Origin: Pseudocercospora fijiensis CIRAD86
Lineage: Eukaryota > Ascomycota > Dothideomycetes > Mycosphaerellales > Mycosphaerellaceae
DNA: 64,000 nucleotides
Assembly (NCBI RefSeq): GCF_000340215.1
Contig: NW_006921548.1
Location: 607,400 to 671,399 of the forward strand
Reading direction: 5' to 3'
The notes under the pieces were generated by a model that worked only from the letters and a program-made list of their open reading frames with translations, searched no databases and was not told the origin of the DNA. Position numbers and translations under genes: made by a program. Shown piece by piece: positions 25,013 to 58,034 of the stretch; the first letter of the stretch is position 1; every line of letters begins with the position of its first letter.

Positions 25013-25227
25013 TAATTTTATCTCTAATACATACTAACGACATCCGATAGCACTGTGAAGGTGTAGAACATAATTGAGCCCCTATCTCTTCTAACTAGGT
25101 TGCTATAGGCTAACTATATAGACAGCCTTACTATTGTCGTACGTTTCCGGACACCTTCCTTTAGTAACAAATTACCTTAGCAGTAGCGCTGTCCTCTTTA
25201 TTTAATTCTCCTACTAACTAGCTACTG

Positions 25228-28346: not shown

Positions 28347-28492
28347 CTTACAATAGCAACGTAGGTACTAATCCAGTTGCTAGAATGCGCACTTAGCTAC
28401 ACGTAACGCTAAGCCGACCCCGGATTTTAGAATCCTATATACCTAATTAGTCAATTTCTACAAGTAGAGACTTTCGGAGCTAGCGCCGGTAT

Positions 28493-28582
28493 CTCCGAAC
28501 AAGCGCCGACTTCCCGAACAAGCGCCGACTTCCCGAACAAGCGCCGACTTCCCGAACAACCGCCGACTTCCCGAACAACCGC
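28493..28582 (+). repeat. 19-bp minisatellite, about 4.7 units
   Basis: The unit is cccgaacaagcgccgactt. The last units change aag to aac. It is GC-rich within an AT-rich setting. Confidence 0.85.
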
Positions 28583-28954
28583 TAGTAAAGCCTTTTGCCT
28601 TCCTTCTAATACTTCAAATATATAGTAAAATATATAGTAAAATATACAAACAATTAATAAGAAAATTAATAAGAAAATTAACTAAAACATTAATAAAAGA
28701 ATTTATAAAACAACTTATAATAAAAGAACCTATAGAAAAATTAATTTTAATTATAGAAAACATACGATTTAAATTTATAAAATTACCGAAAAATATTAAA
28801 GGAACGAGAGCGAGAATAAGAGCGAGGAACCCTAAAATTCGCGGCTCCGCTATACTAGGTATATATAAAATTTAAAAACTCGCGGGCGCTACCGCTATTA
28901 CTACGTAAGTAGAAGGAGCAGAAGTACTTACGTACGGGTACTATCCTAGTTAGT

Positions 28955-29310
28955 AAAACAATTAACAAAACAACAAACAAAACAACTAATAAAACAACTA
29001 ATAAAACAACTAATAAAACAACTAATAAAACAATTAATAGAACAATTAACAAAACAATTAGTAAAACAATTAACAAAACAATTAACAAAACAATTAATAA
29101 ACCAATTAATAAAACGATAAATAAAACAATTAACAAAACAATTAACAAAACAATTAACAAAACAATTAACAAAACAATTAACAAAACAATTAATAAAACA
29201 ATGAATAAAACAATAGTAGAACAATTAGTAAGGCAATTAATTAAATAATTAATTAAACAATTAGTAAAGCAATTAGTTAAACAATTAGTTAAACAACTAG
29301 TAAAATAAAT
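28955..29310 (+). repeat. 12-bp-period A-rich tandem array
   Basis: Some 25 to 30 units of aaaacaattaac and variants (aataaaacaact, aacaattagtaa). The minus strand reads as monotonous Leu-Ile-Val or Phe-Ile-Asn-Cys repeats; these are an artefact of the array and not a protein. Confidence 0.85.
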
Positions 29311-38680: not shown

Positions 38681-39517
38681 TCTATGTATTTCTGTTTCCA
38701 ATCTTTTAAAGTCCTAGAATAACCCCTAGTCTAGTACTATATTAGCTTACTCTACACTCCCTACCTAGATAATTAGGGAAGACTGCTTCTTAGTCTCTTC
38801 GATTTTCCTTTTAATCTATACTACTTTTGTGATCTTTAGGCCTAGGTATATAGCTTAGTTTTGTCTCTATAGGCTCTTAATATCCTATTCTTCCTTAAAG
38901 CTTCTTATTATACTATAGGCTATAATTATAAATTGCTGTTAGGAGACCTTTGCTGTTTTCCCTATCTTAGTTGTCTATTCTTTTTGTGTTTCTAGCTTCT
39001 TTTTGTCCTACTCTTATACTATAAATAGCTTAATTACCCCTTTACCTTCGTTCTTAGCCCTAATTACCTCTTTAACTGCAATTCTTTCTACAATCTCTTT
39101 CCCTATAAGTCCTTAGATTTCCTTTTACTCCTGTAGGTCCGTAATGTAGACTCTAACTACTGTCCTCGGGGGTTTTAGCGCCTCCTAACTAGCTACTGCT
39201 GCCTAGGTGCGGTAGTTTAGGCTTATCTCCTATTGTTTCTTCGTAATCTTTGCTGCGACTATATTTGCTACCTTTGTGATTACGTAGCTTGCCTAGTTAT
39301 AGATTGCTTTCAGTCCTCTAAGGAGTTCTAAGATTATTATCCTATATGCCCTCTTAGGGGTTCTTCTATCTTCTGCCTTTAGCACCTCCTTTGCCCTAGT
39401 ATATAGTGCTTTCTATTCGTCCTCCCTTCCTTCTTAACTATCTTCCCTCTGTCTCTAATTGTTCGCTGCTATTTTTCCTTGAGGAATAGTATATAGCTTA
39501 GCAATGCTAAGGCCCTT

Positions 39518-39531
39518 TAGACTATTATATA
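39518..39531 (+). repeat. Target site duplication of the LINE, right
   Basis: tagactattatata; identical to 34597-34610, after which Copia sequence resumes. Confidence 0.9.
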
Positions 39532-42500
39532 ATATACTAGTTAATAAAAGCCCCTACCCCCTACCTATACTTCTTAAATAAATTATTTATTATATCCCTT
39601 AACTCCTTCGATATAGAAGGTCGCTACCGTAGTATAGTACCTTCTAAGATCCTAAGATCCTGTCGTAACTTCCTAAAATAGAGAGTTAATCTTTAGACCG
39701 ATATATAGGCCGAAGGCCTTTAGTCCCTCTTTAAAGGATCCGAAAGACCTCTTAGCTATCTAAAAGTAGTCGACTTCGGGCTAATAAAGGATAAAGTAAA
39801 CCTCCTAGCGGATCTATATATCGTCTAGGAAGAAGCCTACTATATCGAAGAAGAAGGAGGAAAAGAAATAAAGCTAGTTAGCCTCGGCTTTACTATAGAT
39901 AAAGTCGCTTCCCTAAAGCGCCGAATTAAGAAGTATAGGACGTATAAGAAGCGTTAATCTCTTCTTACCGATAATAAAAAGAAAGACTATAACGCCTACT
40001 ATAAGAAGACTCGTTCTATCTTTAGACTAGACGAACTTATAAACCTTTTTAAAGTAAAGCGAAAGGAAATTAGGAAGGGTCTTAGTCTTAGTAAGAAACT
40101 TAACCTACTTAAGTTTAAAACGGACGAATAGCGGTATAATTAGACTCGAGTTTAACGAGCTCTAGCTAGCTTCGTCGCCCGCTTTCCTAAAAATCTATAG
40201 CGTCGAATTTAGAATTTTATAGACCCTTTCGATACCTTCGTATAGCTAGACTCGTAGTATCGAGCTACGCCTTAAAAGGAACTAGAGAGAGCCTTCGACT
40301 AATAGGAAGATATCTAAATATACGACTTTAAGTCGGTATAAGACTATATTAACAAAATCGAAATAGCGGCTTTCGATATTAATACTACTAGTAGATATAT
40401 TAGCCCTAAGATAATAATATCTAAGTTTATCCGTAATCTAAGAGGAGTAATATAGGTATAAGGCTTCCTTAAAAACTATCGTAATATAAGAATCCTTAAC
40501 CTAACCTCCGATAACTTCGATACTATATCTATAAGACTACTTACGTTCGAAGAGGACTATTAAGCAGGCTAAGCTAATAAGATAAATAAGGTATACTTAA
40601 AGTTATTAACGGACTCGAAGAACTTAGAGAAAAAGAGTAATAAGAAACCCGACGTTACCTACTATAACTATAGTAAAGCCGGTTACTACGCGCGCGACTA
40701 TCGTAGCGTAAAGGGACTATAAACGGTTAAAACTACGAACAAAACAGTAGTTAATAAGATAAAGATAATACCTACTAGGCGTAAGTTTATAGTAATAGTA
40801 AACTTCGATAAAGAAAGTAACTACTACGTTACGTAACGCAATACTCTTAATTTAAAGAAAGTAGAGCTAAGGCAATATATAGGTACGTACTTATTAAGTT
40901 TATTATACAAAATACCTACTAATAAACCCCTTAGCCTAAAGGGGGAGAAGGTAGGTATAGAGAATAGTAAACGAGATTATACGCGTTCTACTTATAATAT
41001 CTCTAGTTTTAATAGTCTTTATAATTTAATATTGTATTCTCCTTTAACTCGTCCCGTTTACTATAATACGTAGATTATCGACTCGGGTACTAACCTATAT
41101 CTAGTTAATAATAAAAAGTAGTTTAACGACTTTAAACCCTAGAAGTCCTTAGTAGGCACTGCCGACGGCGATAGCCGAATATATATCGAGGGTAGTAGCC
41201 CGGTAACCCTAGCGTTTAATACGAACGAGGGACCTACCGAACTTACTCTAATAATAGTAGCCTACGTACTAATACTAAGATATAATATCCTCTCTATATT
41301 ATAGCTTTCTAAGAAGGGAAAACTATTAGGATACTAGAAGAATAGGGAAATAGTTATTTAGTCTATAGCGGGATACGATATCGCCGTTATAGAAGAGGTC
41401 GAGGGACTATATAGACTAGTTACTACTATTCCTAACGATAAAGTTATCTATAAAGACTCGCCTAACGATCCTAATACTATAGTCCTTTAGGGAGTAAGAC
41501 CGCCGTATATCGCGGCTACTATCGACTACTCTAACCTAGTCTAGAAGCTTTATCGCCGAATAGGTTATCTAGGCTTTAATAACCTACGACGATTACTAAA
41601 AGTTAGCGAAGGAATTAGAGTTACTAATAAGTAACTAAGAGCGAAACTAGGAGTAGTCTACCTAGTCTACGCTACTTCGAAGGCGTTAGTAAGAACGCCT
41701 CGAGACCTAGCTACCCGGAGATTTAAGAAACCGGGAGAGCTAGTTTACGTAGATACTTAGGGTCTATACCCGATTACGGGACGAGATAGTACTAAGTTCT
41801 TTCTCCTCGTAATAGATAACGCGACGAGATATACGTAGGGAGTCCGTATACGGTCTAAGGCCGAGATCCTATAAAGATTTCGGAAATTACTTAAGAAGAT
41901 TAAGCGAAAACACCGAATTAAGATTAGGCGATATCGTTTTAATAATAAGTTCTTAAATAATAGACTTATTATAGCCTAGCTTAAGAAGTACTCGATTAAG
42001 ATCGAGCCTACTATAGCGTACGCCTACGAACAAAACGGAGTAGCCGAACGCGGATATCGTACTAAAAGAGATCGGGCGGCTATAATACTATAGGAACTAT
42101 CTCTCCTATAAAGAATCTCTTAGATCTTAAAAGATAAAGGAGAAGAGTTTCTTCGAAATACCGATCTAACTAAGGATATATAGCTAGACGCCTTTAATTA
42201 CGCTATATAGCTAAAGAACCGTTCGCTAATAAGGGCACTTAAGATAAAGATTACTACCTAGGAGGTACTATATAGCTATAAGCTAAACCTATTAAGAGAA
42301 TACGTATTCGGTAGTCGCGTATACGTTACTATACCTTATAAGAGACGAATAACTACCTAGTATATAAAGCTCGGCTTACTACGAGTATAGCTAGGATACT
42401 TTATCGGTAATATAGTAGAGTTAGTATATCTTATTTAGGATCTAGATTAATAGAGAGTTAAAAGGAACGCTAATACGTAGATTAACGACGGTATCGACAA

Positions 42501-44815
42501 TAACTAGCTACCTAAAGAAGGGAGAGAGGAGCCTAAAAGGCCTCCCTTACCGGAACTTAATAGAAATATAAGCGATAGCCCTACCTTAGATTTAGACTCG
42601 TCCGATAATAACGGGAATAATAAGTAAGGTAGATCGGTATCTAATTAAAGAGTCTCTAAAAGAGACTCGGACTCGAACGACTCGGATAATAACGAAGAGT
42701 CCGACGTTAGAGTAGAAGACGCTATACCTCGAAATAATATAGAGGGGGTAGAGGAAGAAGAAGATCTCTATAACTCTATACCTCCTCCTTAGGAGCGTAC
42801 CCCTTAATAACCGTCCTAGATTTAGCCGGTATAATAATAGGAATCTATCTTTACCGGAGAAAGTAAAGACGATAATACCGAGTTTAACTAGCGTAGATAT
42901 AAGGACGAGTTCGATAAGAATAGCGCCCCTCGAAACCGGCTAGAAGGAGCTCTTTAAGAAGATAAAGAACTCTTTAGAGATATCGACGAGCTTTAACGAG
43001 AAGTACTTAATACTAGTACTAGATCTAACTTCTTCGCGCAAATAGTAGAAAGAAAGAAACGGAAGCTAGTCTATAAAGACTATCTATACTACTATAAGTC
43101 GTTTAGTAGCCTCGGAAATTATATAAAGACCTACCGAATAAAGGAAGGAAACGAAGACCTATCTATCCGATATCGAATAGAAATAATACCTTCCCTTACT
43201 ACGTAAGGTATCCGTAGCTTAAAACCGGATAACTTTAAATACTAACGATACTTTAAAAGGAAGCTTTAATACGAAGAATTAAGACCCTATACGGTATATA
43301 CTAATAGTAGATCGAGTTACATCCCCTAAAACTCTATATCGCAAGCTCTAATACCTAAGGATAACGAAGTACTTCCTCCTAAAGGAAAGAAAATACCGAA
43401 GGAAGAAAGGTATACCTTCTACTATATATCGAACTATATATACTCCGAGGAAAGACTATATTACTACTACGTACGATATAACGTCTACCTATATAAGCTA
43501 TAAACGTAGAAGTTCGTTAAACCTTAATCCGGCAAGAAGGATAAATATTAAAGCTACTTCTCCTAGAGACTAGTATATAATAAGCAATTTCCTTACTTAG
43601 AAGACTACCCTTGCTTAATATATATTAAATACGGTCGAAAATGCGTAAATTAGGGCGAAGGAAAAATCGGTAGCTAAAAAGGAGTTCCGAGGGAATAAAA
43701 ATGCAAACGATACCTTAAGCAAGTACTTATATATAATAGAAACTACCTATATAATACCTGCTCTAAGCTAAAAGACCCTATTAGGAAATATATACCTTAG
43801 AACTAAGAACCTCTAGGCCTAAGATATATAAGATACGAAAACCGAGTAGGAACTTGCAACCGACAATATCCGTATAACGAATATACTACTAATAGATATA
43901 TATATATATATCCGATTATTCGAAACAGATATTACCTTTAATAGAAGCCTAGTTAGGAATTAGTACTAATAGTTAGAGATAAGTGCTACGAATACTATAC
44001 AAAACTATTAAATAAGAATAAGGAAATCAATTCGGATTATAACTTCCCCTACAATATATACGTAGAAAGAAGAAACTAAGACCCCTACCGGAATATTTAT
44101 AAGAGGGATTATCCCTCTAGAGCTATAGAGGTCTATAGAATCATCCTCTCCGAAGACGAGGCTAAAGTATAAGGTATTCTATAGGTCTTAGGCAAAAAAC
44201 GGAAGAAGTTAGAAGATAACTATACAAGTAATAACGGGCAGGCGGCAAATCTAGTAACTAAACTAAGTTTACTTAACTTCGGTCCGGTTAAAGGGGGAAA
44301 CTGCCGTATAATACCGCAAAAACCTAAGCTTGCAACCGCTATCTGCCTACTAGGAGATAAAGGTAAACTACGCCGAGGGTATAAATACCTACTATACGCC
44401 GAAAACGGCATACTCGATCCGGAACCTCGTACCCTAGCTACTACGAAACGATCGCCGGAAGCGGCTTAGTAGGAGTAAGCAGTTAAAGAAGAATACGATA
44501 GCTTAATTGAGAATTATACCTAGAAGGTAGTAACTCGACCTACCTATTAAAGACCGCTTTTAGGGAGATAGGTACTAAAGCGGAAACTAGGCCCTAATAG
44601 CTCTATAGTCCGATATAAAGCACGCTTTATAGTACGAGGCTTTTAGTAAATCTACGGGATTGATTTTAACGAGACCTTCGCGTCTATTATTAAGCTACCC
44701 TCGTATAAACTATTCTTTACTATCGCCGCTAGAAAGAATTAGCACTATTACTAGATAGACATTAAGACCGCATTCCTTAACGGCGACATTAAAGAAGAAA
44801 TCTATAGAGCTAATC

Positions 44816-46002
44816 GAGCTATTCCCGGGCCCTATTAACAATACTCGTTGTATATCCGCGTACAAGCTAGCTAGAGGAGCCTATACTAGACTGGACGCCG
44901 AAAAGCCCACCGGTCGGTTGCACTAGGATTCTAACAAGGTAAGAGGTGGCAGTCTATACTTAAGAAAGCTGAGTCGCGCCGACCCGCCGGTGTGCCGAGG
45001 TATCGATTCTGGCGGAGTGTAGATAGACTAAGTCTGTACAGAGATAATAGGCTTCCCTAGTACATCGCCCTCCCTTCCTCTCAAAGTCCTCAATCTGGCT
45101 TGCGGGGAGATATTGGCTACCACAAACAAGTGTTGTATATTGGTTGCAGCAATGACTGCACCAAACAAACGGATCCGAGTTAGCTCATCTCCCTCCTCCA
45201 AGATCTTCTAACACATCTTGGCAAGCTCATATCCGCTTCTAACCCTTTGGGAATCTTGGCTGAGACACTCCCTTGCAGCAATCACGCCAAAGTAGTAGGT
45301 GAGACTGGATGACACGCTGGCTAAACCTTGGGTGAATATGGGGAAGGGGGCTTCGGGAGTTCCTCTCTTACATGTGGAAAAGACCTGGTACATCCAAGCA
45401 CCTAGGGCCTTGTCCTCGGCGCCCTTTCCAACACCTACGCTCAACCCCATAGTTGCCCGCTGGTAGTCAACTTCCCTCAGAGTTCCAAGGAGAGAGGGTA
45501 CACTTCTGCGGATCTCAAAGTCAAGAAGATCCAAAGCCCTTCTCTGTGCGCCTCGTGGGCCTCTCCCACAACTAAGGCAAAACTGGTATCCTACACGGAG
45601 CCAGATTGCTCGGGCTACCGCATCTAAAGTCTCTTAGGTTGTGATTCGATTCCCCTTAGGCAAGTCTATCACTCGTTGAGATTGGGGAACTCCGAACGTT
45701 CTCCCCATGCGGGTGGTAACAGGATTGCCCTTTCGAAACTGCTCTAAGAAGAGAATAGAGGCGGCGGAAACTATGGAAGATTCTCCCTCCGCCTAGGGAA
45801 GCTTCAGCCTGTTTCCTTGTAGTCGGGCAGAAGACTCTGCGTTCTTGGACAGTGTAAGAGCCATCACGCTAGTGTAATAATTTCCGGTACCCGCTGAGAA
45901 AGAAGGCGGGGTCACTTCAGAGGCAATGATGTGGTCGGATATCGGATCTAAACGAGATAGGTCACATTCCATCACCAGCCCCTACGGAGGAGAGTGGAAG
46001 TG
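44816..46002 (-). pseudogene. L: Endogenous mononegavirus L protein, broken C-terminal part
   Basis: The L frame continues without any frameshift for 1.2 kb beyond the first stop, interrupted by TAA 46003-46005, TAG 45982-45984, TAG 45793-45795, TAA 45634-45636, TAG 45208-45210, TAG 45028-45030, TAG 44923-44925 and TAG 44881-44883. Recognisable coding stretches lie between them (for example DLSRLDPISDHIIASEV and RIRLFGAVIAATNIQHLF). The last piece, near 44817-44845, reads VLLIGPGNSS, resembling the SAM-binding loop of the L methyltransferase, and then Copia sequence begins. All stops are explicable by C-to-T at CpA, the RIP context. The remaining methyltransferase and C-terminal domain are absent. 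Confidence 0.85.
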
Positions 46003-49000
46003 TTAAGAGTAGTGCCAGCAGGCCAAGCTCGCCATGCTCAACATTGCCTCTTGGAAATCAAATGGGTAATCGGTGGTGCCTATCTCTCTAGACAGGTTAG
46101 TGGAGTAAGTGACGTGAGTTTGGAAGTTAAAGCATCCATTCCAGTAAGATCCTTTAGGATTATCCCGAGTCTGATACCTGTGACCGACACAACCTCCTAT
46201 CCTCACCCGAAGAATCTGGGTCAAGTCTTCCACATCCAGGTGAGACCGGGATTGTGCCAAACTAGTGAGCATGGCATAGGTGGAGGAGTTCGGTTTCGTC
46301 ATTATCTCCCGGATGGACAAGAGTCTCAACACATCCCGAAGTGGAGGAGATGTATTGACCGGCTTTACCCACTTCTCCACAGCCTTGTCCGAGGTTGCTG
46401 AGCCAAGGTAAGGATACACCGGACCGCGCGTGGTGGTGGTAAGGGTACTGTCCGACGTCAATCCCACGAGAACGATAGTAGGTCTCCCAGTGTCTTCCCA
46501 AGCAGTTTGGGGAGTCCAGGTGAAGTCGCCTACGCACAAAGGATGAGCTGTAGAGACACCCTCCAGATGATTCCCCGTCCATCTTTTTCTCAGCTTCACT
46601 GCTACCCGATAGCAATCTCTTCGCGAAAAGGAAGGGCTGTTGATCCCTACCTTGTAGACATAAGCGAAGTTGTCCAGGACACGCTGACAGTATACATAAT
46701 CCGCCGTTAGTGAGGTGTGGGTCACGTCAACCCCAGCTCTCCTACTTATGTTCAACAGGGTTCGTGTATTCGAGAATCTCTTGGCGAATGAGTCTCGAAG
46801 TCCCACTAGAGAAGACTTGTAAATGTCGTGGGCAACCTTGGGGTAGTAGGGTAGCATACTCCTCAGGTAGGCCATCAGCTCCTCCCTGTCGGTGCGCGTG
46901 GATCTCTCCAACAACTCTCTGAAGACCTGGTTCTGAGTTATCTCTGGGAGAATTTGAGAGGTGGCGTTAGCAACTTTGCTCGAGGGAGCAGAGTATTGAA
47001 GCAGAGGAAGTGCATACGGATCCTGCACCAACCCTTCTATATCAGGATTGTCTTTGAAGAGCCACCCCTTGAGCAATACCTGCTTGTATCTCTCTACGGC
47101 AACCAAAGGGTCCAGCAAGCATAAATGTATCAAGGAGGAACACAAGGGGTCGGAGTGTCCCCTGTACATTATCTCTAGGAAGGTGGTAATAGGAAACCCT
47201 CCCAAATTCGAGGGAATAGACAACGACAACCGAACAAATTCCCTTGCTGCTCCCTCTCCCGACGGAACGTCCAAACCTTGAGGCCCACACAGGGAGCGAA
47301 GGTGGTCCGCCAAGCGGGTTCCGTGCAACAGCGACCGCTTGTACTCCCTACACAGTGTCAAGCACTCAATTGCCTTGGACAGGTAATACACCGGGTAGGT
47401 CCAATCACTCCGGTCCGTTGCACCAGACGCTCCAGAGGAGATGCTGGACATCATCTCATATAGGCTAGGTGCGTCACTGGTGGTGGAAGGAAACATCCGG
47501 GACACGGCCTTCAAGCAGGTAGGTAAGTATGCACCGTTGAGTATCATCTCCTTGCCGTAGATGAGAAAGCAGGTGGAGTAGATACACTCTTCAGGCTTGA
47601 CCTGTTGACCAACCTTTGCCCCGATCACCGAGATCGACTGAGACGCCCGACGTACAGTACCTCTCACTAGTTCTTGCTGCTGCTTTTCGGAGGTGTTCCT
47701 TGGGATGTAAATGTTCAAGAGACATACCTGGTTATCTCCTTGTCCGATAATGCGGTAGGACAAATTCATAGGCCACAGTGCCATGTGAACAAGACAAATG
47801 GTGCAGGTGGTCCAGAGCTTTTGGGCTATTCCCTCGAAGCCTCCCTTGTGATTGTACCACAAAGTTCGGCCTTCAGGAGGATCCCGCCGGTTCATCTCGT
47901 TCAGGTTGTCGGGTGGGTAGTCTGGCATCCGCAACATACAGAGAGACGACTCAAAGAAGTCATGGACTACCGAGAAGACTCCAGCGGTTCCGTATATTTG
48001 GTCCATTCTAAAGCCAACCCGGTGAACTACCTCCTTCCTCCAGTACAAGTTCCATCTCTCAAAATCAATTCCGAGCACTGCTCGAACCCAGGAGGCACCG
48101 GTCTTTTCTGTCGACTTTAAGAACAGGTTAAGCAGCTCCGTTCTGGAAAGTGTCATTGTCTGTTCCGGTAAGCTTTTGAAAATACCCTCCGCAATGTTGT
48201 GCTCGGTCAAGACAAAGAACAGCCTCATCTCCAGCGTCATCATGGAGAACATTCTTGGTTGAAGCTTCATCTCTCTCTCTTTGGGGCAAACGGTCACAAT
48301 GCGCCACTTGTAAGGAATGTCCTTCTTAGCAACCTGCTCCACTATGCTGGCCAAATCCAAGTCAGGACGGGATATCAACTCCTCCATGACTCGTGAGGAA
48401 GTGTTGGGCCGCTCCGGTTTGTAATCTAGCTTGGTATTCCAGGTGTGGTCAAAGTGCTGCCTCTCGTAAGACAGAGACTTGTCCACCACCAACCTCAAGA
48501 TGTCCTCTCCGTAGTCAAAAGATACATGAGGTAGGAATCTGGCATAGTTCCAGTCGGAGGAGGGATACTGGGTGAATCCGAAGGCCAAACTAGGTTGATG
48601 TCTTTTGTAGAGCAGTTCCAGTTGGGTTGGCCCACCGATCCGAGGTGTGAACTCTAGGGGAGGCCATCTGCCTCTTTTCTGCAAGTACCCTCGTGTGTAC
48701 ATGTGGCAGAAGCAGTGCTCCAGTTCCTTGCAGTTCTCAAGACTGAGGTTTAACTCTGTCTTCCCCACTTTCTTTGCCGACTCACATCCAGCCACTGGAT
48801 CCACGTAAGGATGCCCCCAAAGCTTGAGGAAACCGAATCCCTCCGCCACGTCCGCAGTCTTCTTGAAAGACCTCAAGTACCCATCCAATCGGTCCACACA
48901 TGCACAACGTCCGCCTAACTTCCTTTCTTTCTCCCTATACTTTTCCACCATCACCCGGTGTTGCTCCTCTGCATCCAGTAGCTGTTCTTCCCGACGGATC

Positions 49001-49035
49001 ATCTCAGTGGGAAACCTCAAACACCTCCAACCCAC
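46003..49035 (-). CDS. L: Endogenous mononegavirus L protein (RNA-directed RNA polymerase and capping domains), open part
   Basis: A 1010-codon open frame; it stays open upstream to a TGA at 49138-49140, and the codon at 49035 is GTG, so there is no genuine start. Numbering from 49035: LKLWGHPYVDP at 70-80, KEREMK at 252-257, motif A IDFERWN at 323-329, motif B GGFEGIAQK at 398-406, motif C GQGDNQ at 431-436 (GDNQ is the hallmark of non-segmented negative-strand viruses). The capping domain follows, with PYLGSAT at 875-881 and GHRYQ with the HR pair at 952-953. The GxxT position appears as GPVY. In viruses this enzyme copies and caps viral RNA. About 250-300 N-terminal residues are missing. 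Mymonaviridae-like origin is inferred from the fungal host; Bornaviridae/Nyamiviridae relatives are alternatives. Confidence 0.93.
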   Translation of the reverse strand: MGWRCLRFPTEMIRREEQLLDAEEQHRVMVEKYREKERKLGGRCACVDRLDGYLRSFKKTADVAEGFGFLKLWGHPYVDPVAGCESAKKVGKTELNLSLENCKELEHCFCHMYTRGYLQKRGRWPPLEFTPRIGGPTQLELLYKRHQPSLAFGFTQYPSSDWNYARFLPHVSFDYGEDILRLVVDKSLSYERQHFDHTWNTKLDYKPERPNTSSRVMEELISRPDLDLASIVEQVAKKDIPYKWRIVTVCPKEREMKLQPRMFSMMTLEMRLFFVLTEHNIAEGIFKSLPEQTMTLSRTELLNLFLKSTEKTGASWVRAVLGIDFERWNLYWRKEVVHRVGFRMDQIYGTAGVFSVVHDFFESSLCMLRMPDYPPDNLNEMNRRDPPEGRTLWYNHKGGFEGIAQKLWTTCTICLVHMALWPMNLSYRIIGQGDNQVCLLNIYIPRNTSEKQQQELVRGTVRRASQSISVIGAKVGQQVKPEECIYSTCFLIYGKEMILNGAYLPTCLKAVSRMFPSTTSDAPSLYEMMSSISSGASGATDRSDWTYPVYYLSKAIECLTLCREYKRSLLHGTRLADHLRSLCGPQGLDVPSGEGAAREFVRLSLSIPSNLGGFPITTFLEIMYRGHSDPLCSSLIHLCLLDPLVAVERYKQVLLKGWLFKDNPDIEGLVQDPYALPLLQYSAPSSKVANATSQILPEITQNQVFRELLERSTRTDREELMAYLRSMLPYYPKVAHDIYKSSLVGLRDSFAKRFSNTRTLLNISRRAGVDVTHTSLTADYVYCQRVLDNFAYVYKVGINSPSFSRRDCYRVAVKLRKRWTGNHLEGVSTAHPLCVGDFTWTPQTAWEDTGRPTIVLVGLTSDSTLTTTTRGPVYPYLGSATSDKAVEKWVKPVNTSPPLRDVLRLLSIREIMTKPNSSTYAMLTSLAQSRSHLDVEDLTQILRVRIGGCVGHRYQTRDNPKGSYWNGCFNFQTHVTYSTNLSREIGTTDYPFDFQEAMLSMASLACWHYS

Positions 49036-49223
49036 ATTGGAGTGACTCCAAGTTACACGATAACGCCCAGCAATCCCAAAAGCATCACATACTTGGCCAG
49101 TATGTCCCTGTGGGACTTTGATACTTGCTGTGCCATGTCAATTCCTGTGAAGCATAAGGTTATTCTCGTCTGAAGACTAGCGACCTCATCCGTCTCAATG
49201 GTAGGCGAAGATGCAACAACATC
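49036..49223 (-). other. N-terminal edge of the viral insertion
   Basis: The L frame is open to 49137 and reads VPQGHTGQVCDAFGIAGRYR before joining the main ORF. The neighbouring frame is also open, from about 49210 to 49060 (MAQQVSKSHRDILAKYVMLL), and joins an upstream frame through a TAG at 49221-49223. Which of the two is viral is not decided, so the boundary with host DNA lies somewhere between about 49050 and 49220. No poly(A) tail or target duplication was recognised. Confidence 0.5.
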
Positions 49224-49763
49224 CTACTGCATGTACCGCCTGTTCGCCAGGCGTTTCTGGGATGAGATTCGGCCTGGAGGAAGCATTCTCGAAACTGATC
49301 GCTTTTGGCGATACACGAGCACTTCGAATGTCTTGAGAGAACAGCGGTGAATGGTTCCAAGGTCACTTTCCGTGACTGGTTGTGGGTCTGAGTGGCAGGA
49401 AATGCCTTTCGTTCCACAAGACCATTCCGGCCCACGGCAGTACGTCAAATGAAACGCATGCAAGCTTGCGGCGGATGTAGAGGCATCGAGGGATGCGCTG
49501 AAGCTCAGCTCAGCTTGACCCGACGAGTTGTCTTGATCTTTACAGTGACCGTTCTGCTTCGCAACAGAAGAACAGGAAGACAGCCTCTCTGCCCGGTATA
49601 CTCGCGCGCTGAGGAGCCGCAGATACGCCGAGCTTGCTACCTTTCGCAAGGCGGACGTGCTGAAGATGTCGTCCTCGGAAGGTCTCTTGAGCGGTGACGA
49701 TCGATGTCCGTGTTGCATCTTTTGATACGCCATTCTGATGGGAATGACATGCTCCAACGGCAC
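49224..49763 (-). CDS. Hypothetical ORF of 179 codons upstream of the viral L
   Basis: An open frame rich in Ser, Arg and Ala without a recognisable domain; it contains a Cys/His-scattered middle (SCSSVAKQNGHCKDQDN). It ends with TAG at 49224-49226, after which the same frame continues open toward 49060. It could be a decayed host exon, part of the viral region, or chance. Overlapping plus-strand frames reach only about 100 codons. Confidence 0.2.
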   Translation of the reverse strand: MPLEHVIPIRMAYQKMQHGHRSSPLKRPSEDDIFSTSALRKVASSAYLRLLSARVYRAERLSSCSSVAKQNGHCKDQDNSSGQAELSFSASLDASTSAASLHAFHLTYCRGPEWSCGTKGISCHSDPQPVTESDLGTIHRCSLKTFEVLVYRQKRSVSRMLPPGRISSQKRLANRRYMQ

Positions 49764-49842
49764 TGTCGTCTGCCTTGATCTCTTCTTCTTGTGCCGCTTG
49801 CGTTCATGTCTGCCACGAGCTGTGCTTTGCTGTCTTTTTCTC

Positions 49843-49868
49843 CGAGCTGAGCTGAGCTGAGCTGAGCT
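49843..49868 (+). repeat. Pentanucleotide repeat (gagct), five units
   Basis: gagct occurs five times in a row within block C, next to shorter duplicated words (aaagagtcttcat twice at 49895-49925, gtcgcgtgtcgcgtgtcgc at 49974-49992). Confidence 0.85.
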
Positions 49869-51513
49869 TCGCCTGCATCGGCGTCTTCATCTTGAAAGAG
49901 TCTTCATCTGAAAGAGTCTTCATGTGCGATACTGAACTCGCGTAGATTGGGGAAGCGATTCGCATTGCTGTCTGTCGCGTGTCGCGTGTCGCAGAGTTGA
50001 AGAGTAAGAGATCATCTGAGCGAGAAGTTCGCGTCGAGTCTCTCGTTCCGTTCCCGCCGTTCCCGCGCATCGCATCCGAGCTCCGCGACTGCTTTCAATA
50101 CTCTCTCTCCTACCGCCCTGCCCTGCCACAATAATCGCGACGACACACCCACAGGTGCTTGCATACGAGCGGTGCGGTGGTACCTCTCGGCTCCGATCCG
50201 ATCCACGCATTACGCGCTTCAAGCTTCGACACATCAATTTGGACCTGTCCACCTTGCAAGACGTAGCCGGCGAATACCAGTCGTTTCATCTGGAAACTTC
50301 CTGCGAGTACCTGGGACAAGTCAAGAGGTGGATGGCTGGGAACCAAGAATGAAATTTGGGCTGAGCACAAGAGGAGAGATCCCGATTACAGATACAATAC
50401 TTCGAGCTGCTCGAGCAATACCACGGATATGCAAAAGCGTCAAAGAATAGCAAAGGACGCTCAATGAAGCGATATGGGCATCCTAGCAGCCTTATATGAG
50501 CACCCTGATGTTCCTTCTGCTCGATGGGATATCAGAACACCGCGCATCAATCTACGAAGCTTTCCACACGAATGTGGCACTACCGTGTCCGGGACCTTCG
50601 ACAGCGCTCTCACACCTTCAAATGATCCCTTGATGTCTCTGCTCCGCTTGCTGGGAATGAGATGCATCCGAAGCCCTCAGTGGCCTCGAAACACAACACA
50701 TACACCCCAGACCTACCGGAAGACCGAAGAACAATGAAGTAGTGCAGTTGTGCGATCGTCCTATCTTCGCGAGATTCTGTCAGCTATCCAAGCAAACTCA
50801 CATTCTCCATCATTACCTCCCATCTGGTAAGAGAATCATCGCTGACCGCGATAAACTGTCATCTCATGCGCTGAACTCTTCAAACACATCGAGAAGGCAA
50901 GCTCGAAGTGCTGCAAAGCACATTCAGTACACAACATGAATACAACACTGGTGGCATCCTGAAGCAAAGGCAGCCCTCCGTCTGGCGGCTCGTCTTATGG
51001 AGCGAGAAGGTAGATCTTCAGCATCAATCTGCCGGCTAGAGCACAGTTCGGATTGATTACAGCAATGGAAAGTCTTCTAGGAACGTCTACAGATCTGTAT
51101 ACTGTGGAAAGCTGGCCCGAGTAATGTCAACCTTCTTTAGTTGGAAATGATCTCGCATTTCAATCAGGCCGACCACGCATTTGGTTATCGAATTCTATGC
51201 CGTCGCATGAGTGATTTCATCATCCGAAGAATGATGATCGTGTCAAAGTCAAAGTAATCGATTATGGAGAAGCGTTGGGAATTCCAGCTTCAGCCTGACC
51301 AGCAGACGCTAGAGCTGCCACAATCTCGGCATCTTTGACTATGGTCTCAATATGCGCCAGTATCCACACCTCCAACGAGCTTTTTGTAGCCCCAAGTTGC
51401 TATGAGAGGCAGTTGGAGTCCAACAGGACCACCTATACTCTCCATTCAACAAGCACCATTCTGGAAACAAGAAGGACGTATCTGCTACTTTCTCCTACAT
51501 CAATGGTCGATGC

Positions 51514-51534
51514 GCTCTCTCTCTCTCTCTCTCT
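51514..51534 (+). repeat. (CT)n microsatellite
   Basis: About ten uninterrupted CT units. Confidence 0.9.
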
Positions 51535-52333
51535 GCATTGACAAAGTGTGGTCCCCCGAGCATCACATGATCATCATGCGCCATCCCCATGGTTCATGAT
51601 CATCGACGTCCATGAAACTTCGGTATCGGGCAGCTGCCTGCAGTCTTTCGACGTTGAGTATGCCACCTGTACGTCCTACAGCTTGATCAACTTGGCCATC
51701 TGTATGTATCCGATCCGACCTGCCTGAAGGCCACCTTCGGCCATTTGCATGCCCGCCATTTCACTCTGGCTTGATGGACGTCAGTCAACTTGCTTCCATC
51801 GCAAGTTTTGCACGCTTCTGGACGAACGCACCGGATCTGGTGATGAAGCCATGTTGCTGTGATCGAAATTAGGCCAGTGTTCGCCCAATTCTGAGCGGAA
51901 AATAGCTTCGGGGCCCTGCATCGCGGCTTTGATAGCAAGCGTCGCCTGCAGCTGTGTGTGCATACCCGATCGGAAGAAGCAGGAGTCTGACGCAAGTTCA
52001 TCATGATTGATCATGGCCATGACATTCATTATGGTCCGGAACAGCCAGCACCAGGATAATTATGGCCTGCTTCCTTCCAATAAACCTTCACCACTTCGAT
52101 CATCTCAGCTCTGCCTGTCCGTCAAACATTGCAGACACTGCTCGTTTCTCTGCTGATTCTTAACAAGTAGAGCTTTGCAGACTTTTATCGACGTCCAAGT
52201 CGCTCTGTCGACCACAAACCTTATCAGCCTTCGTTTCCACCATCTCTGTTCTCCTGCAGAAATCACATTCACTCTCCAGATCGAATTCGATGGATGCCCA
52301 AACTGCCTTGGCCACCATATTCAACCCATCAGC

Positions 52334-53026
52334 ATGAGAGATAGGGCTACAGCCCAGATCTTCTTGGTCACGGCCACACATAATCGCAGTCGCTCAGGCA
52401 AGAGGCTCAATGAGGGCTTCCCGCGCAAGAGGGAGATCCTGGCCTGCGACACGTGTAAGGCGACAGCAGCAGCATTGCGTGAAGCCATGATCAATCTGTG
52501 GATCACGAGAACTCTTGTCCGTTATGGCCGCATCCCAGTATGCCATTTCACCTTTCTTTCTTTTTGCTTGCGAGCTTGATGCTGACATACTTGTCTCTCA
52601 TTATTAGAATGAAAACTCCAGTGTTATCGACTTGACGAACACCAACCCAAACAACAATGAACCCTTCGCCAACGAAGCCCCACACACTTGCGGCGTCTGC
52701 CTTGAAGGCGACATCAATCCTACATTCGACAAGAAATGCTACTAATGCAGCCAATTTCTTCACGCTTAGTGCTTCGAACACCTCTCTACCACTACAGCAG
52801 ACAACATCACGGCCGAGTATTTCATCTATGGCAATTCTCCCGACGGTTTCGCCCTCATAAACCGAGACACTAGAGAAATCTACGGAATCGAGATAGATGT
52901 CAATTGTCCCTTCTGTCGTGCCCGGTTAGGCTCCGTTGATGTGCCGCAGGAGGTGATTGTTGATTTGCTTTACGGGCAGCTGGAGGAGGAATATTATGCT
53001 GCTCTGGAGATGTTGGACAGATAGGA
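52334..53026 (+). pseudogene. RING-finger-like protein gene with one intron and two in-frame stops
   Basis: Exon 1 can start at ATG 52334 (the frame is open back to 52175) and ends ...YGRIP. A 70-bp intron, 52538-52607, has GTATGC, a TGCTGAC branch-site motif and a TTATTAG end. Exon 2 continues in phase and carries CGVCLEGDI, then Cys-Tyr-stop-Cys, FLHA-stop-CFEHL, and finally VNCPFCRARL, the Cys/His spacing of a RING domain; it ends with TAG near 53024. The two stops (TAA at about 52743, TAG at about 52770) sit in the zinc-binding region and resemble CAA/CAG or TGG mutated by C-to-T. RING proteins are usually ubiquitin ligases; this copy cannot make a complete finger. Confidence 0.6.
52538..52607 (+). 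other. Predicted intron in the RING-like pseudogene
   Basis: 5' GTATGC, branch-type TGCTGACA at 52579-52586, 3' TTATTAG. The length of 70 bp is typical of filamentous ascomycetes, and both exons join in phase 0. Confidence 0.6.
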
Positions 53027-53578
53027 GTAGAGGGCGTACAATCTTGACTATTGATGGGAGAGATGGGCGAGCTCAATTCATGATGATTGTGGATTGCTTT
53101 GATGTATACCTTCTTGAGATGGGACATGACAACAGCGAGACGACCGCGCTGTTGATAAGAGCACATTGATAACGGCCGAGGTATTGTGGTCTAAGCTGGT
53201 TCGTCGCTTTATTAGAGCTTTCTTACTCTCATAGATCGTCTAGAAGGAAATCGAAAATGCTACGCTTGTACACGTATCAAAATCTTGAGTCACTGTCTTC
53301 GACGTCACATGAAAAACTTCTAGCCTGCAGCTGATTTGCACACGAAGAGATTGGTGTTCAGCTTCCAAAGTGCGATGGAACTCATTTCTTCTTCTACTGA
53401 GTCGCTCCTTGATCTCCTTTTTCTACCAAATATTGAAAAGACTACATTTCGCCGAAAGCAGCTTGCTGCTCTCACGCCTCGATTGTGCAAGAAGGTCCGA
53501 GTGGAGGTCAGAATGATTGATTATGATCAGACTTCTACGCAATGTTGTGCGTGAAGCTGCTCCGAGTCTTGACCAGTC
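53027..53578. other. Intergenic, nothing recognised
   Basis: Balanced composition. Short frames only, none with a domain. Confidence 0.4.
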
Positions 53579-53900
53579 TCAGAATGCTTCAGTGTGTCGA
53601 AAAACAGCGTCGATCGTTATTCGACTGGTATGAAAGACCTTCGGTTGGAAAGTGAGCGTAGTGCTAGCTTCACCTGTGATTATGGGATCAGACTCAAGAA
53701 TCGAATGAAGAATCCCTAATGCAAACCACAGGTAGTAGGCATCCGATGAGTCCTCCAAGGCGAGCAAATAGGGGTGCTCGGAGCGTTTCTGTTCTTTACT
53801 AGTTTTTGAGCTTCCTCTCCGCAGCACCGAGGGCAATTTGAACTGTACGAGAGGCCTTCCATCGCCTTGGGCTCTCGCTATCTACCTCTAGGGTAGATAT
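53579..53900 (-). CDS. Exon-like open frame, unknown protein
   Basis: The minus strand is open for about 107 codons from near 53900 to the stop at 53579. It reads GDGRPLVQFKLPSVLRRG, then SEHPYLLALEDSSDAYYLWF and ALGILHSILESDPIITGEAS. The mix of acidic, aromatic and aliphatic residues looks like real protein and not chance. There is no in-frame ATG at the left end of the frame; the sequence preceding it (gaggtag) could be a splice acceptor, so an upstream exon may be lost or unseen. No family recognised. Confidence 0.35.
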
Positions 53901-54169
53901 CGCCTGTCGCTACATCAAGCGGGCCTCTTGTTGTCGCAGTCTTCTGAATTACCGGAAGAGGCCACAGTCAAGGTCGTTCTGAGGAATGGAGTGCTATCGT
54001 CCAGAAGATCCACGGCCTTGAAAAGAAGGTGGGATGATTTCGAGGAGACATGCAACGATGTGGTGATGCGAACGTGGCTGGCTTCATGTTGTGCAACGTC
54101 GCCAATGGTTCCACTGGCACGTCGACCGTCGCCTGCCTGCATATCGCCATCGAACATACACATCCAAAA

Positions 54170-54486
54170 ATGCTCAGCACTACCCAAACTCCAGCGTCGC
54201 ACGTCGCACCGCCGCAACAGCCTGCGTATCACAATACCTCCGCGGGAGAAAGCAAAACACGAAGACAGCCCTACATCCATGAACAGGATAACCGAGCCTG
54301 TCAGAACTGCGCCGATGTACAAAAGGCCATAGAAGCGATGCAGGAGGACATGCAAGAGCTGGAGGATCTACTCTAGAATACTGCTTGACCGAAACACTGG
54401 CGCAGGTGGAAGCCGCACAGATGGCCCCGCGACACCAGCCAAATGAGGAGCCTGTGGTCATCAATGGCGGAGCATATACTGCATGA
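54170..54486 (+). pseudogene. Small coiled-coil protein gene with a probable frameshift
   Basis: ATG at 54170 sits in a good context (ccaaaaATGctc). The first frame gives 68 residues: a Pro/Ser/Thr-rich start, a CQNC pair, then the acidic helix VQKAIEAMQEDMQELEDLL, ending at TAG 54374-54376. The next frame immediately continues the same heptad pattern (EYCLTETLAQVEAAQ) to a TGA at 54484-54486, as if a small indel at about 54373 had split one gene. Function unknown. If the first stop is genuine, the product is a 68-residue protein. Confidence 0.45.
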
Positions 54487-55833
54487 GTGATATACGCAGC
54501 CTAGGAAGCTTGCAGAACCCTACACATTCAGAAATACCGCCGGGAATGCCATTACCAGTCCCGCGAAGCAAGTCATAATCGCCAGGCCTTGTCGGTCATC
54601 GGTCTATCTGGTGCTCTCTGACATTGGTCTCATGCTTGCTCTACCTCCCACGAAAGCAATATGGACCGCCAGAGACCGCATACTATGAAGTCGACAACGC
54701 GGGCACCAGCGTCATCATCAGAGGGTTGTCCAATCTTGTTCTCCTCGATCGACAAGCTGCATATCACTCAAATGGATCAGGAATCGAGATGAAGACTGCC
54801 GTGTGATGAAGCATCAGATGGAGACCTTCCGTCGCCGAGCTTGCCGGAGTCTGCTCTTTCAGTGCCCAGTTTGGCGTCAACCTATCGCGGTTCTGGAGCA
54901 GCGACAAAAGGATGCACTGCTTGGCAGCATTGGTACGACTGAAACTTCCGTGCCAGGTTCATTGTTTCCCAAAGAAGTAACGAAGGGTTTCGAAGCTCCT
55001 TGCGATATGGCGAACGATGTCTGTGGCAGTAGAAAATGCGTTGAGATTATCACGAGATTGGGCTGCGTGAGCTTGACTCGGGATTCTTGGATCATTGCTG
55101 TCACGACCCCAGGAACCGGATGTTCAACATTCAGACTTGCACGTCAGGCCCGCACAGGGCTCAAGAGAGCACGTTCTGGTGTACAAGAGAGTCGAACGGG
55201 ACTTGCACTGGACGTCCATGTGTCTTCGAATAGTGATCCTCACGAAATGATGGATTCTTTGCATCCCTTACAATCTTTGCGGCTCCGATTTCGCGAGCCT
55301 GTCTATCAGCAGCTTCCCAGTTACCAGCATAGAGTTCCTGCTCGTCACTTCGAATCCGGCCACTACTTGAGTACAAAAGCGGCCTTCCGCAAGCATTCAC
55401 AATGATGGTCGAGCGAGTGGCTTGCGACACTAGGCGGCATGCCGGCATGGAACGTGCATGGCTCAGGCTGAGCTTCAAACCCCTCCTTCTATGGCAACAC
55501 TGCGAACCCTCCCAAATGAAGCTCAGACCCGGGTCTTCGGAGTTCGGCGGAGTCGCGAGATTCAGCTCGACAAAGTCTTTGCTGTGGAAAATCCAGGCAG
55601 TGCTGCCAATACGCGATGCCGCTCTCTTCATCCTACACATCGTCATCCTGGGCTTCGTGGAAGCGTTTCACCTCCTCGTCCGCTTTCGGCTTTCGTCGTC
55701 TCAACGATCAACGGGTCCGCCACGAATCTGTCAAAGGCTTTTTGAAGCATATGATGGTAAAGACAAGGTTCTCAGCCTTCCCTGCATCGAACTTCCTCTG
55801 CAAGACAGTCATCCCTTGCGGGGGTCGTATGTC
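54487..55833. other. Block C, long antisense-overlapping frames, no gene supported
   Basis: Plus-strand frames at 54803-55405 and 55402-56040 (200 and 212 codons) and a minus-strand frame at 55161-55646 overlap one another. None has a domain; the second overlaps the better supported minus-strand membrane-protein pseudogene and is considered its shadow. Confidence 0.4.
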
Positions 55834-57140
55834 TCAATCCTCTGCCAAGCCAAGTTGGGAGGCAACAAAGGCTGCAACCATGAACCCAAGGATAATTGTC
55901 CAAGTCGCTGCCATCTGAGAGGCTTCAGTATCATGGAAGCTTGCAGAAAGCGAACCTCGCACGAACCTTTGCATTTCCATCCCACCATTTCTCATATTCT
56001 TTCTTCAGAGGTCCTTCTTGCGCTCCGACCCAAAGCATGAGACCCATCCCGACTACCATGTACAGAACGCTCGTAGTCAACAAGGCTGGTCCAATTTGCC
56101 AAGTGTGCACGCGTCATCGATGTGGTAGCACATGGCCGTTCTGGCTGAGACGACGACTAGCCATGCATCTCCGGATCCGCTCGAGGCCATCTCTGTGTGC
56201 GGCCAGTCGATGCAACCGCATCGCCTGCTGAGCGACTGTCAAGACCGCGAAGAGAGCACAAACGATGCCGGCATACCAACATGTCGTGACAGTCCATAGC
56301 TGCGATCTGCCATTGCCAAGCACGTTCGGCCAATCCCCAGTTGAAGTGAGACAGCTTGCTAGGAGCGCACCCTTCTCGAGGTGATCCGAGCACTGGACGG
56401 AGAATTCAGCTCGCAACATTTGAGAGCGAGACTTACAACAATGCCGACGAAGTTCAGCTTTTCGAGCTTATGGGTCTGCTATTTCTCGGTAAGTCTATCG
56501 CGCTCTTTCTCGTCCTGAGTGTTCAAGATGATGTAGATCGAGCCAGAAGTGGAGTCGTCGAAAGGGGAAAGGCTGATGTAGACACGGCGTAGTATGCCTA
56601 CGCTGGCTTTCATCGCCTACTCAGTAGTTAGTGTTCGACGCACCGCAGGAAGCCTGGTTGGCAGGATTGCCCTCACGATTCGCCACCCGTCAATCAATTC
56701 TTGTCGATACGATCTAGCCTTGGCGGTAACCTCACTGGACAACTGATCAAGTCTCGCCTATTGCTACACGATGGCTCATCGACGAAATATCATTGTTCTC
56801 AGCCTCAAGGTGATGCTCCAATTGCAGCAGCAATACCGTGACCATGACGATACTCAGAAGTCCGAGCTGTGATTGGCTCGGCATACCAAAGCCAACGCGG
56901 CCGCGAAGCCCGAGCTGGAGATGAGTGACATTCCGACTCAATATTGGAGAGAGATGGGAGCGATGAACATATATAGCAATCACACGAGCATGATCACTCA
57001 CGGAAGGATAGACTGGAATCAACATGCTTGAGGGGCCATCAAGCAGCTCTTTAGCATTTACTGAACACCCTTCTACCAAAGCTACGACTTCACGTTAGCC
57101 GTCTCCACCAACGAGTTGCTGCGGGTTCCATAAATGATCA
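55834..57140 (-). pseudogene. Multi-membrane-segment fungal protein gene, decayed
   Basis: The minus strand preserves exon-like pieces in order. Exon 1 has WNPQQLVGGDG, then TAA, then REVVALVEGCSVNAKELLDG. An intron 57001-56915 (GTGAGT...CAG) is followed by a hydrophobic helix and a charged helix (RLDQLSSEVTAKARSYRQEL) that lies in a shifted frame. Next come SLSPFDDSTSGSIYIILNT with an internal TAG, and a membrane helix after GRSQLWTVTTCWYAGIVCAL. A TGA follows, then HTWQIGPALLTTSVLYMVVG with WVGAQEGP and a WWD motif, a final helix MAATWTIILGFMVAAFVAS and a stop at 55834-55836. The layout suggests three to four membrane segments. The family seems common in ascomycetes but is unnamed. Three stops and one frameshift indicate a dead gene. 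Confidence 0.55.
56915..57001 (-). other. Predicted intron of the membrane-protein pseudogene
   Basis: GTGAGT at the 5' end, CACTCATCTCCAG at the 3' end, 87 bp, phase 0. Confidence 0.45.
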
Positions 57141-58034
57141 AGTCGTCAGGAAAAGAAGTTCTGCACCTCATGGTATGCAGTATGTTCGAATGAGCAGGTC
57201 TTGCCGTTTAATCGGCGAGCAAGCAAGCAAACCTGCCTCGATACCTTTCCCGAATCATCATGCACAGGCATGCGGAATGTTCAAAGTCAGACCAGGTGTG
57301 CACATAGCTCCACCACTTCCACTTGGATAAATCATTGGTCACCATGACTAGATGAAGTCGCCCACGATCGACTCATGATTTGCTTCCGGCATCCATAACG
57401 CCAGCGCATCTCTACCAACCACAACGAGCGAGCTGTTATTATTAAAAATTCCGTTATTTTCTCTTCGCAGCTATGATATGAGGGACAGCCACTTCTTCAT
57501 AATCACTTTTATCGGTTACTTCCACGTGCTTGGACCACTTTGATACTCTCCCAAAGCCTCGTCTCCAAAATCGCATCCTCAAGTTGGTTCTGGTCCACGA
57601 GTTCCCCGCAATGTTCTAAGATGTTTCTCGCTGGTCCCTTTCTTGCTAGACTTGATGCTGCTGAAATAGTCTTGCAACTTGATTATCCACTACACTTGGT
57701 GCAGTGACTCTGCGATGCTTCAATGGGTATGCAGAAAGAACGGCCGCGAAGGCGATCAAGTCTCCAGCTGGCAGCATGAAGTTCAGCGATACGATGATGG
57801 CACACCTTTGGACTGTCAAATTCTGCTGCTGGCGCTATGGAGCTCGCAAAGTAAAGACTTTGAGGCAAGACTTCGATTCATAGCGATAGCTTAGAGTCCC
57901 GGATTTGAGACCGAAATGCCTGGAGGTTTGGAAAAAAGTCTACCGGCATTCCAGCCATCAAAGCGGCTCAAGACGGCATGCAATTATATTCTGGCTACAT
58001 CCAGGTCTTGGGAAGCCCTATGTTGGGTTTCTAG
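57141..58034. other. Right part of block C, nothing recognised
   Basis: Balanced composition with short frames on both strands (longest 71 codons at 57679-57894). AT-rich DNA starts at about 58035. Confidence 0.45.

What the first reader, a model, noticed from the sequence alone, without database searches (positions are those of the whole stretch)
44816..49137. Fossil of a fungal negative-strand RNA virus: an integrated L polymerase gene with about 1,045 open codons
The minus-strand ORF has the complete set of mononegavirus L landmarks in the right order: KEREMK, motif A, GGFEGIAQK, GQGDNQ, PYLGS, GHRY. DNA copies of non-retroviral negative-strand virus genes are known in eukaryotes, but one this long and this open in a fungus, set in a graveyard of transposons, is unusual. 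It records past infection of the lineage by a mymonavirus-like agent, and the open part might still be transcribed.
Basis: partly seen in the sequence, partly recalled or inferred. Interest (0 to 1): 0.92.

Follow-up and report, generated by a model that had tools for sequence, protein, structure and literature searches.

The report
Fungal chromosome carries viral polymerase fossil
The chromosome of a fungus that is likely the banana black Sigatoka pathogen holds a DNA copy of the middle of an RNA virus's polymerase gene, fused to a dead retrotransposon that likely helped to capture it and from which the fungus's repeat-mutating defence has likely spread into one end of the viral gene; such viral fossils are already known in fungi, though this one is unusually long and open.

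Summary
On the minus strand, 44,812-49,011 encodes about 1,400 codons of a mononegavirus L polymerase (Pfam Mononeg_RNA_pol 2.5e-125; mRNA-capping 7e-22) in one frame. The first 1,002 codons (inside a 1,044-codon stop-to-stop frame) have no stop; the last 397 have 8. About 240 N-terminal and 250-275 C-terminal residues are missing. The element is single copy in a 73.9-Mb genome. The host is very likely Pseudocercospora fijiensis: protein MYCFIDRAFT_84735 is identical over 425 residues. In trees it sits in a clade with 15 unnamed environmental L proteins, within a larger clade that holds the named mymonaviruses. It joins, inside the reverse-transcriptase region, a Copia element heavily hit by repeat-induced point mutation (RIP). 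RIP-type synonymous states fall across the viral gene with distance from that junction (48% to 17%) while control sites stay flat. Best reading: a non-retroviral endogenous viral element, single copy and so spared by RIP except near its repeat neighbour. The open frame needs no selection if neutral divergence is below about 2-2.7%. It is a new member of a known kind. Capture by the Copia element is inferred; expression and domestication are untested.

The parts
44812..49011 (-). Endogenous fragment of a mymonavirus-like L gene (about L residues 241-1640 of 1,900)
   Evidence: tblastn of 15 close relatives, one frame, e.g. P0016 265-1662 of 1932 at 57% identity; N-terminal profile match starts at ~49,011
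46003..49137 (-). Open frame of 1,044 codons (stop to stop); the ATG at 49,002 gives 999 codons
44812..46005 (-). Decayed C-terminal quarter: 8 in-frame stops (all TAA or TAG), RIP-type synonymous shift
48265..48282 (-). KEREMK motif of the L polymerase
47818..47844 (-). GGFEGIAQK motif
47728..47745 (-). GQGDNQ, catalytic motif C of mononegavirus polymerases (name of the motif from recall)
   Evidence: QGDN invariant in 14 aligned sequences, the element included
46399..46413 (-). PYLGS, in the mRNA-capping region
46174..46185 (-). GHRY, HR motif of the mRNA-capping region (name of the motif from recall)
44812..44824 (.). Left junction zone: Copia similarity ends and viral similarity begins; the two overlap by a few bases
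39515..44818 (+). Copia copy A, broken off inside the reverse-transcriptase region at the viral junction, strongly RIP-mutated; 39,515 is where similarity to copy B ends
   Evidence: 96-98% identical to copy B; RIP index 1.59 for 42,000-44,812
25047..34037 (-). Copia copy B, inverted, interrupted by insertions, continues through reverse transcriptase beyond the point where copy A stops; its true ends are not fixed
   Evidence: Pfam RVT_2 3.6e-12 and 1.2e-9 for two of four pieces
49012..58000 (.). Right flank: GC-rich, not RIP-mutated; a query of 49,000-52,500 had a single 155-bp match (76%) elsewhere in the genome

Best explanation
Window 44,812-49,011 (minus strand) is a single-copy DNA copy of the middle of a mymonavirus-like L polymerase gene, fused to a RIP-mutated Copia retrotransposon in a fungus that is very likely Pseudocercospora fijiensis; it was likely made when retrotransposon reverse transcriptase copied viral RNA, and RIP has likely leaked from the Copia side into its last 1.2 kb. 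Shown here: viral homology, single frame, truncation at both ends, single copy, the junction inside Copia RT, stops confined to the Copia-proximal quarter, and a falling gradient of RIP-type synonymous states with flat controls. Inferred: capture by Copia reverse transcriptase (template switching, or joint capture of two cDNAs at a break); RIP leakage as the cause of the decay; and inertness, the long open part surviving because a single-copy sequence is not a RIP target and the element is young (neutral divergence below about 2-2.7%). How likely: integrated element 0.95; RIP leakage 0.75; Copia-borne capture 0.5.
For: Pfam 2.5e-125 and 7.3e-22. All 15 close relatives (52-57% identity) align as one stretch in one frame over about 1,400 codons. 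One match in the 73.9-Mb genome for PF00946, PF14318 and the element's DNA. 8 of 8 stops lie in the 397 Copia-proximal codons, 0 in the 1,002 others, p 4e-5. RIP-context synonymous states: left 43:53, right 64:185, Fisher p 0.001; controls 137:139 against 309:385, p 0.15; trend -0.34 per kb, none of 1,000 permutations as steep, control trend p 0.20. TpA observed/expected is 1.15 at the Copia end and 0.49-0.61 in the last two of seven bins. RIP leakage of at least 930 bp into single-copy DNA is reported for Neurospora and invoked for Leptosphaeria (passages of PMC2973834); RIP with CA-TA bias is reported in P. fijiensis repeats (passages of PMC4981457). Host: 425 residues identical to MYCFIDRAFT_84735. 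Tree: inside a 16-row clade at 100/100.
Against: No LTR was located for either Copia copy: blocks like copy B's 3' end lie at 34,119-34,217 and 34,420-34,509, but in the opposite sense to copy B, and none flanks copy A. No target-site duplication could be tested, because the right end of the viral part is not fixed to the base. Only 3 of 8 stops face Q or W in at least half of the relatives, so RIP is not shown stop by stop. The interaction test of RIP context against control is modest (p 0.025). Absence of TGA among 8 stops is not significant (p 0.09). Of 130 mismatches between the two Copia copies 119 are transitions, but only 46 stand in the CpA/TpG context. The window's contig is 828,493 bp, the contig listed for MYCFIDRAFT_84735 is 851,953 bp, so how the two records relate is unknown. 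The relative P0028 shows that 7.9% deviation at otherwise invariant sites can be purely viral.
Confidence: 0.8

Rival explanations
1. A domesticated viral polymerase: the 999-1,044-codon frame (polymerase plus most of the capping region) is kept open by selection and ends at the stop at 46,003-46,005; what lies beyond decays because it is no longer translated.
For: 0 stops in 1,002 codons against 8 in 397. The element deviates at 16 of 351 clade-invariant sites in the open part but at 7 of 41 in the well-placed left part (Fisher p 0.006), while the equally divergent P0028 shows no such contrast (30 of 381, 3 of 44). Precedent: bat eEBLL-1, 1,718 codons, transcribed and under selection (abstract of PMC4865735).
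Against: The same contrast is expected from RIP leaking in from the Copia side, and the dinucleotide gradient supports that. If neutral divergence is below 2.1-2.7%, having no stop in 1,002 codons is not unusual without selection. No ortholog or transcript was available.
Confidence: 0.12
2. The viral segment entered by end joining of a free viral cDNA; the Copia neighbour was there already (or came later) and played no part.
For: No LTR or target duplication ties the viral end to Copia integration.
Against: The rest of Copia A is not found on the far side of the viral segment in the window, so it is not a simple insertion into Copia; a later deletion would be needed.
Confidence: 0.4
3. Assembly chimera or contaminating viral cDNA joined by mistake to fungal contigs.
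For: No long reads were available; the assembly has a 100-N gap at 34,225-34,324.
Against: The gap is not at the junction and is the only run of N in the window; a protein with 425 identical residues is on an 852-kb contig of a P. fijiensis record; RIP-type change grades from the junction into the viral gene, which needs physical linkage in a living fungus; 8 stops would not be in a live virus.
Confidence: 0.03

Closest known systems
[quoted passage not shown]
   Same: Same polymerase and capping domains (precomputed Pfam) and one clade with the window's element and its relatives.
   Different: The element's own 16-row clade holds no named virus; the element is DNA, truncated at both ends, with 8 stops.
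MYCFIDRAFT_84735, 437 aa, Pseudocercospora fijiensis CIRAD86 (UniRef name begins 'RdRp catal')
   Same: Residues 1-425 identical to the frame from ATG 49,002; very likely the same locus.
   Different: The protein leaves the viral frame right after the catalytic GDNQ for 12 residues read from another frame near 47,443, as after a predicted intron, although the frame stays open here.
L-like proteins under Golovinomyces names (P0011, P0013, P0121)
   Same: L-like proteins in records of a fungal genus.
   Different: 29-41% identical to the element or its P. fijiensis gene product; P0011 and P0013 are in another part of the tree. Their contigs are 5.6-10.4 kb, so integration is not shown.
Bat eEBLL-1 endogenous bornavirus-like L
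   Same: Long open L-derived frame in a host genome (abstract, PMC4865735).
   Different: There transcription and selection are reported; here neither was shown, and only the middle of L remains.

Membership tests
Non-retroviral endogenous viral element | Sequence derived from an RNA virus without DNA stage | tested here: met
   Pfam, PDB and protein searches: mononegavirus L
Non-retroviral endogenous viral element | Joined to host chromosomal DNA on both sides | tested here: met
   Copia on the left, nearly unique GC-rich DNA on the right, in an 828-kb contig; in the assembly only, long reads lacking
Non-retroviral endogenous viral element | Fragmentary or decayed, not a whole viral genome | tested here: met
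   Both L ends missing, 8 stops, one L region in the genome
Non-retroviral endogenous viral element | Shared with other isolates or species at the same site | not testable with these tools
   No other fungal genome could be searched; one public P. fijiensis protein matches
Mymonaviridae (origin of the element) | L groups with mymonavirus L proteins | tested here: met
   97-row clade (support 100) in a 111-row tree; 16-row clade at 100/100. Midpoint and single-outgroup rooting only
Mymonaviridae (origin of the element) | Negative-sense genome of about 10 kb with NP and other ORFs | not testable with these tools
   Only L is present; 9 of 15 clade relatives lie on contigs of 9.4-10.4 kb, which fits (PMC12642805, whole text)
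Domesticated endogenous L gene (eEBLL-1-like) | Long open frame with polymerase motifs | tested here: met
Domesticated endogenous L gene (eEBLL-1-like) | Purifying selection after integration | tested here: inconclusive
   Contrast between open and decayed part, but RIP leakage explains it too
Domesticated endogenous L gene (eEBLL-1-like) | Transcription | not testable with these tools
   No RNA data held
LTR-retrotransposon-borne chimera | LTR and target-site duplication bounding the fused unit | tested here: inconclusive
   No LTR was located for copy A or, in the right sense, for copy B; the right end is not fixed to the base, so no duplication could be sought

The most novel reading that the evidence does not exclude
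The fungus has kept a truncated mononegavirus polymerase-capping protein of about 1,000 residues as a working gene: the first domesticated negative-strand viral replicase in a fungus, for instance acting in antiviral RNA interference.
Probability: 0.08. Interest if true: 0.85.

Novelty: new member of a known kind. Interest (0 to 1): 0.45.

Why it matters
It would record an infection of the lineage of a major banana pathogen by a mymonavirus-like virus. No paper in the held library has both the species name and 'mycovirus'; a narrower search under the old name also found none. It ties a so far unnamed environmental clade of L proteins to a likely host, a plant-pathogenic ascomycete. It also gives a clear natural case in which RIP, a defence against repeats, appears to reach into a single-copy viral fossil from the retrotransposon it is fused to. 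Repeat neighbours, and not only time or selection, may then decide which part of a viral fossil stays open in RIP-active fungi. That can be tested on other fungal viral elements.

Tried and rejected
Chance frame: rejected. More of L beside the element: no N-terminal continuation to the right and no C-terminal continuation into Copia; no second L region by family or DNA. PF14314 found nothing in the genome, but the control rang nowhere, so this says nothing. Other viral genes (nucleoprotein and so on) were not searched for. Relatives in IMG/VR: none by six peptide patterns. LTR and target-duplication test for Copia capture: no support. My first reading, that the blocks near 34,119-34,509 are copy B's LTR, was wrong, since they lie in the opposite sense. 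Stop-type spectrum as RIP evidence: not significant; facing residues: only 3 of 8. In one search some left pieces were placed badly, so repeats the count on three of the seven left pieces that were aligned (255 columns), and the left-hand rates are not used. Tree rows: 9 of 119 proteins were left out of the 111-row tree for short overlap; 38 of the 111 rows were chosen for the careful tree. One search scored only the 7,992 candidates that share most words. A bacterial promoter and terminator scan of 48,800-50,200 was uninformative. The search of the whole genome with a full relative L protein did not complete. Literature: 10 searches; listings show at most 20 papers each, and I opened six (PMC12548735, PMC4865735, PMC9069137, PMC12642805, PMC4981457, PMC2973834). 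I saw no description of this element. PMC12548735, which screens databases for such proteins, does not name Pseudocercospora in its main text (term search, passages and one section); its supplements were not readable and may list it. A 2013 paper by Kondo and others on negative-strand sequences in fungi is known to me from recall and from one citing sentence; that fungal negative-strand fossils are already in print rests on that recall.
Full report
What is there. The minus strand carries a stop-to-stop frame of 1,044 codons at 46,003-49,137; the longest chance frame in 200 Markov windows of 64 kb was 301. Pfam assigns it to Mononeg_RNA_pol (2.5e-125) and Mononeg_mRNAcap (7.3e-22). The 35 PDB sequences matched are L, large structural or RNA polymerase proteins.

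Extent. All 15 close relatives (1,735-1,932 residues; P0001 lacks its N-terminus) align as one stretch in one frame, ending at 44,806-44,812 in 14 and at 44,755 in one. P0016 matches with residues 265-1662 of 1,932 at 57% identity. A profile of the first 300 residues of 14 relatives finds in the right flank only the piece that begins at about 49,011 (E 6e-12; next 1.8). A profile of the C-terminal part finds two weak pieces, the last ending at about 44,809 (E 6e-4), and nothing significant beyond (next 0.89). So roughly residues 241-1640 of L are present and both ends are missing. The frame from 49,011 to 46,006 has 0 stops in 1,002 codons; the next 397 codons have 8, all TAA or TAG. The chance of this clustering, if stops fell evenly, is 4e-5.

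Copy number and host. The 73.9-Mb genome (30 contigs) has one match to PF00946, one to PF14318 and one to the element's own DNA. Protein MYCFIDRAFT_84735 of Pseudocercospora fijiensis CIRAD86 is identical over its first 425 of 437 residues. The published genome of that strain is about 74 Mb in 56 scaffolds (passages of PMC4981457), which fits. The window's contig has 828,493 bases and the contig listed for that protein has 851,953, so I do not claim that they are one record. In that paper most gene models lie on 12 scaffolds and many small scaffolds may be dispensable; whether this contig is one of them is not established.

Surroundings. To the left lies Copia copy A (39,515-44,818), 96-98% identical to the inverted copy B. 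Copy B goes on through reverse transcriptase where copy A stops (Pfam RVT_2 3.6e-12 and 1.2e-9 for two of four pieces). Copy A breaks off inside the reverse-transcriptase region where viral similarity begins; the two similarities overlap by a few bases at 44,812-44,824. The Copia side is strongly RIP-mutated (index 1.59 for 42,000-44,812), the viral part intermediate (0.11, -0.10, -0.39 from left to right), the right flank not (-1.02). Of 130 mismatches between the two copies 119 are transitions, and 46 of the 130 stand in the CpA/TpG context.

How it decayed. At synonymous sites in the viral frame I scored RIP contexts (NNY before A; xTR) and control contexts. RIP-context sites are in the mutated state in 43 of 96 cases in the left part and 64 of 249 in the right (p 0.001); control sites in 137 of 276 and 309 of 694 (p 0.15); the interaction has p 0.025. 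In five bins from the Copia end the RIP-context fraction is 0.48, 0.31, 0.27, 0.32, 0.17; the control fraction is 0.49, 0.48, 0.46, 0.42, 0.45. RIP leakage of at least 930 bp from repeats into single-copy DNA has been reported (passage of PMC2973834). Results that do not help: TGA is absent among 8 stops, but p is 0.09, and only 3 of 8 stops face Q or W in at least half of the relatives.

Selection or youth. At 351 sites invariant in 15 relatives the open part deviates at 16; the left part, counted on its three well-placed pieces, at 7 of 41 (p 0.006). P0028, as distant as the element (mean identity 0.599 for both in the open part), deviates at 30 of 381 and 3 of 44. So the open part looks like a virus that has hardly changed since integration. 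With no selection, zero stops in 1,002 codons are compatible (5% limit) with neutral divergence up to 2.1-2.7%. Selection is therefore possible but not needed.

Relatives. Protein searches gave 14, 114 and 11 matches. A 111-row FastTree puts the element in a 16-row clade (support 100) with 15 unnamed environmental proteins, within a 97-row clade (100) that also holds the named fungal and lesion-associated viruses; Orinoco virus, parrot bornavirus 2, Hedemora virus and a hymenopteran virus fall outside (that those named viruses are mymonaviruses is in part from recall). A 38-row IQ-TREE gives the same 16-row clade at 100/100 and a 10-row set with the element at 96/93. Nine of the 15 relatives lie on contigs of 9.4-10.4 kb, the size of a mymonavirus genome (PMC12642805, whole text).

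How it got there. Orientation (Copia sense beside viral genomic sense on the plus strand), loss of both viral ends and the break inside Copia RT would fit reverse transcription that moved from viral genomic RNA to Copia RNA, or joint capture of two cDNAs at a break. This is inference: no LTR was located for either copy in the right sense, and no target duplication could be sought. I give it about even odds against plain end joining.

Verdict. A known kind of object (a non-retroviral endogenous viral element), well preserved, from an unnamed mymonavirus-like clade, with a clear RIP-type gradient. The literature searches showed no description of it, with the limits told in the rejected list.

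Noticed in passing
25047-34037 and 39515-44818: Inverted pair of Copia copies, 96-98% identical despite heavy RIP; 119 of 130 mismatches are transitions. The 3' part of copy B has only two weak matches (68-77%) elsewhere in the genome.
   Followed up: partly
34021-34610: Inverted 92-base pair (97%) around a gap of 100 N, with two blocks like the 3' end of Copia copy B but in the opposite sense.
   Followed up: partly
28950-29305: Array of about 30 copies of a 12-base unit (TTAATAAAACAA) inside an insertion in Copia copy B.
   Followed up: no
4000-9500, 23000-25000, 49138-57500: GC-rich islands without RIP signature between RIP-mutated blocks; 7 of 7 ORFs of 150 aa or more tested in the first and third gave no Pfam match at E 0.01.
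   Followed up: partly
47408-49002: Public gene product MYCFIDRAFT_84735 leaves the viral frame right after the catalytic motif, as through a predicted intron, although the frame is open.
   Followed up: partly
2050-2605: Tandem repeat of a 290-base unit, 96% matches, near the left end of the window.
   Followed up: no
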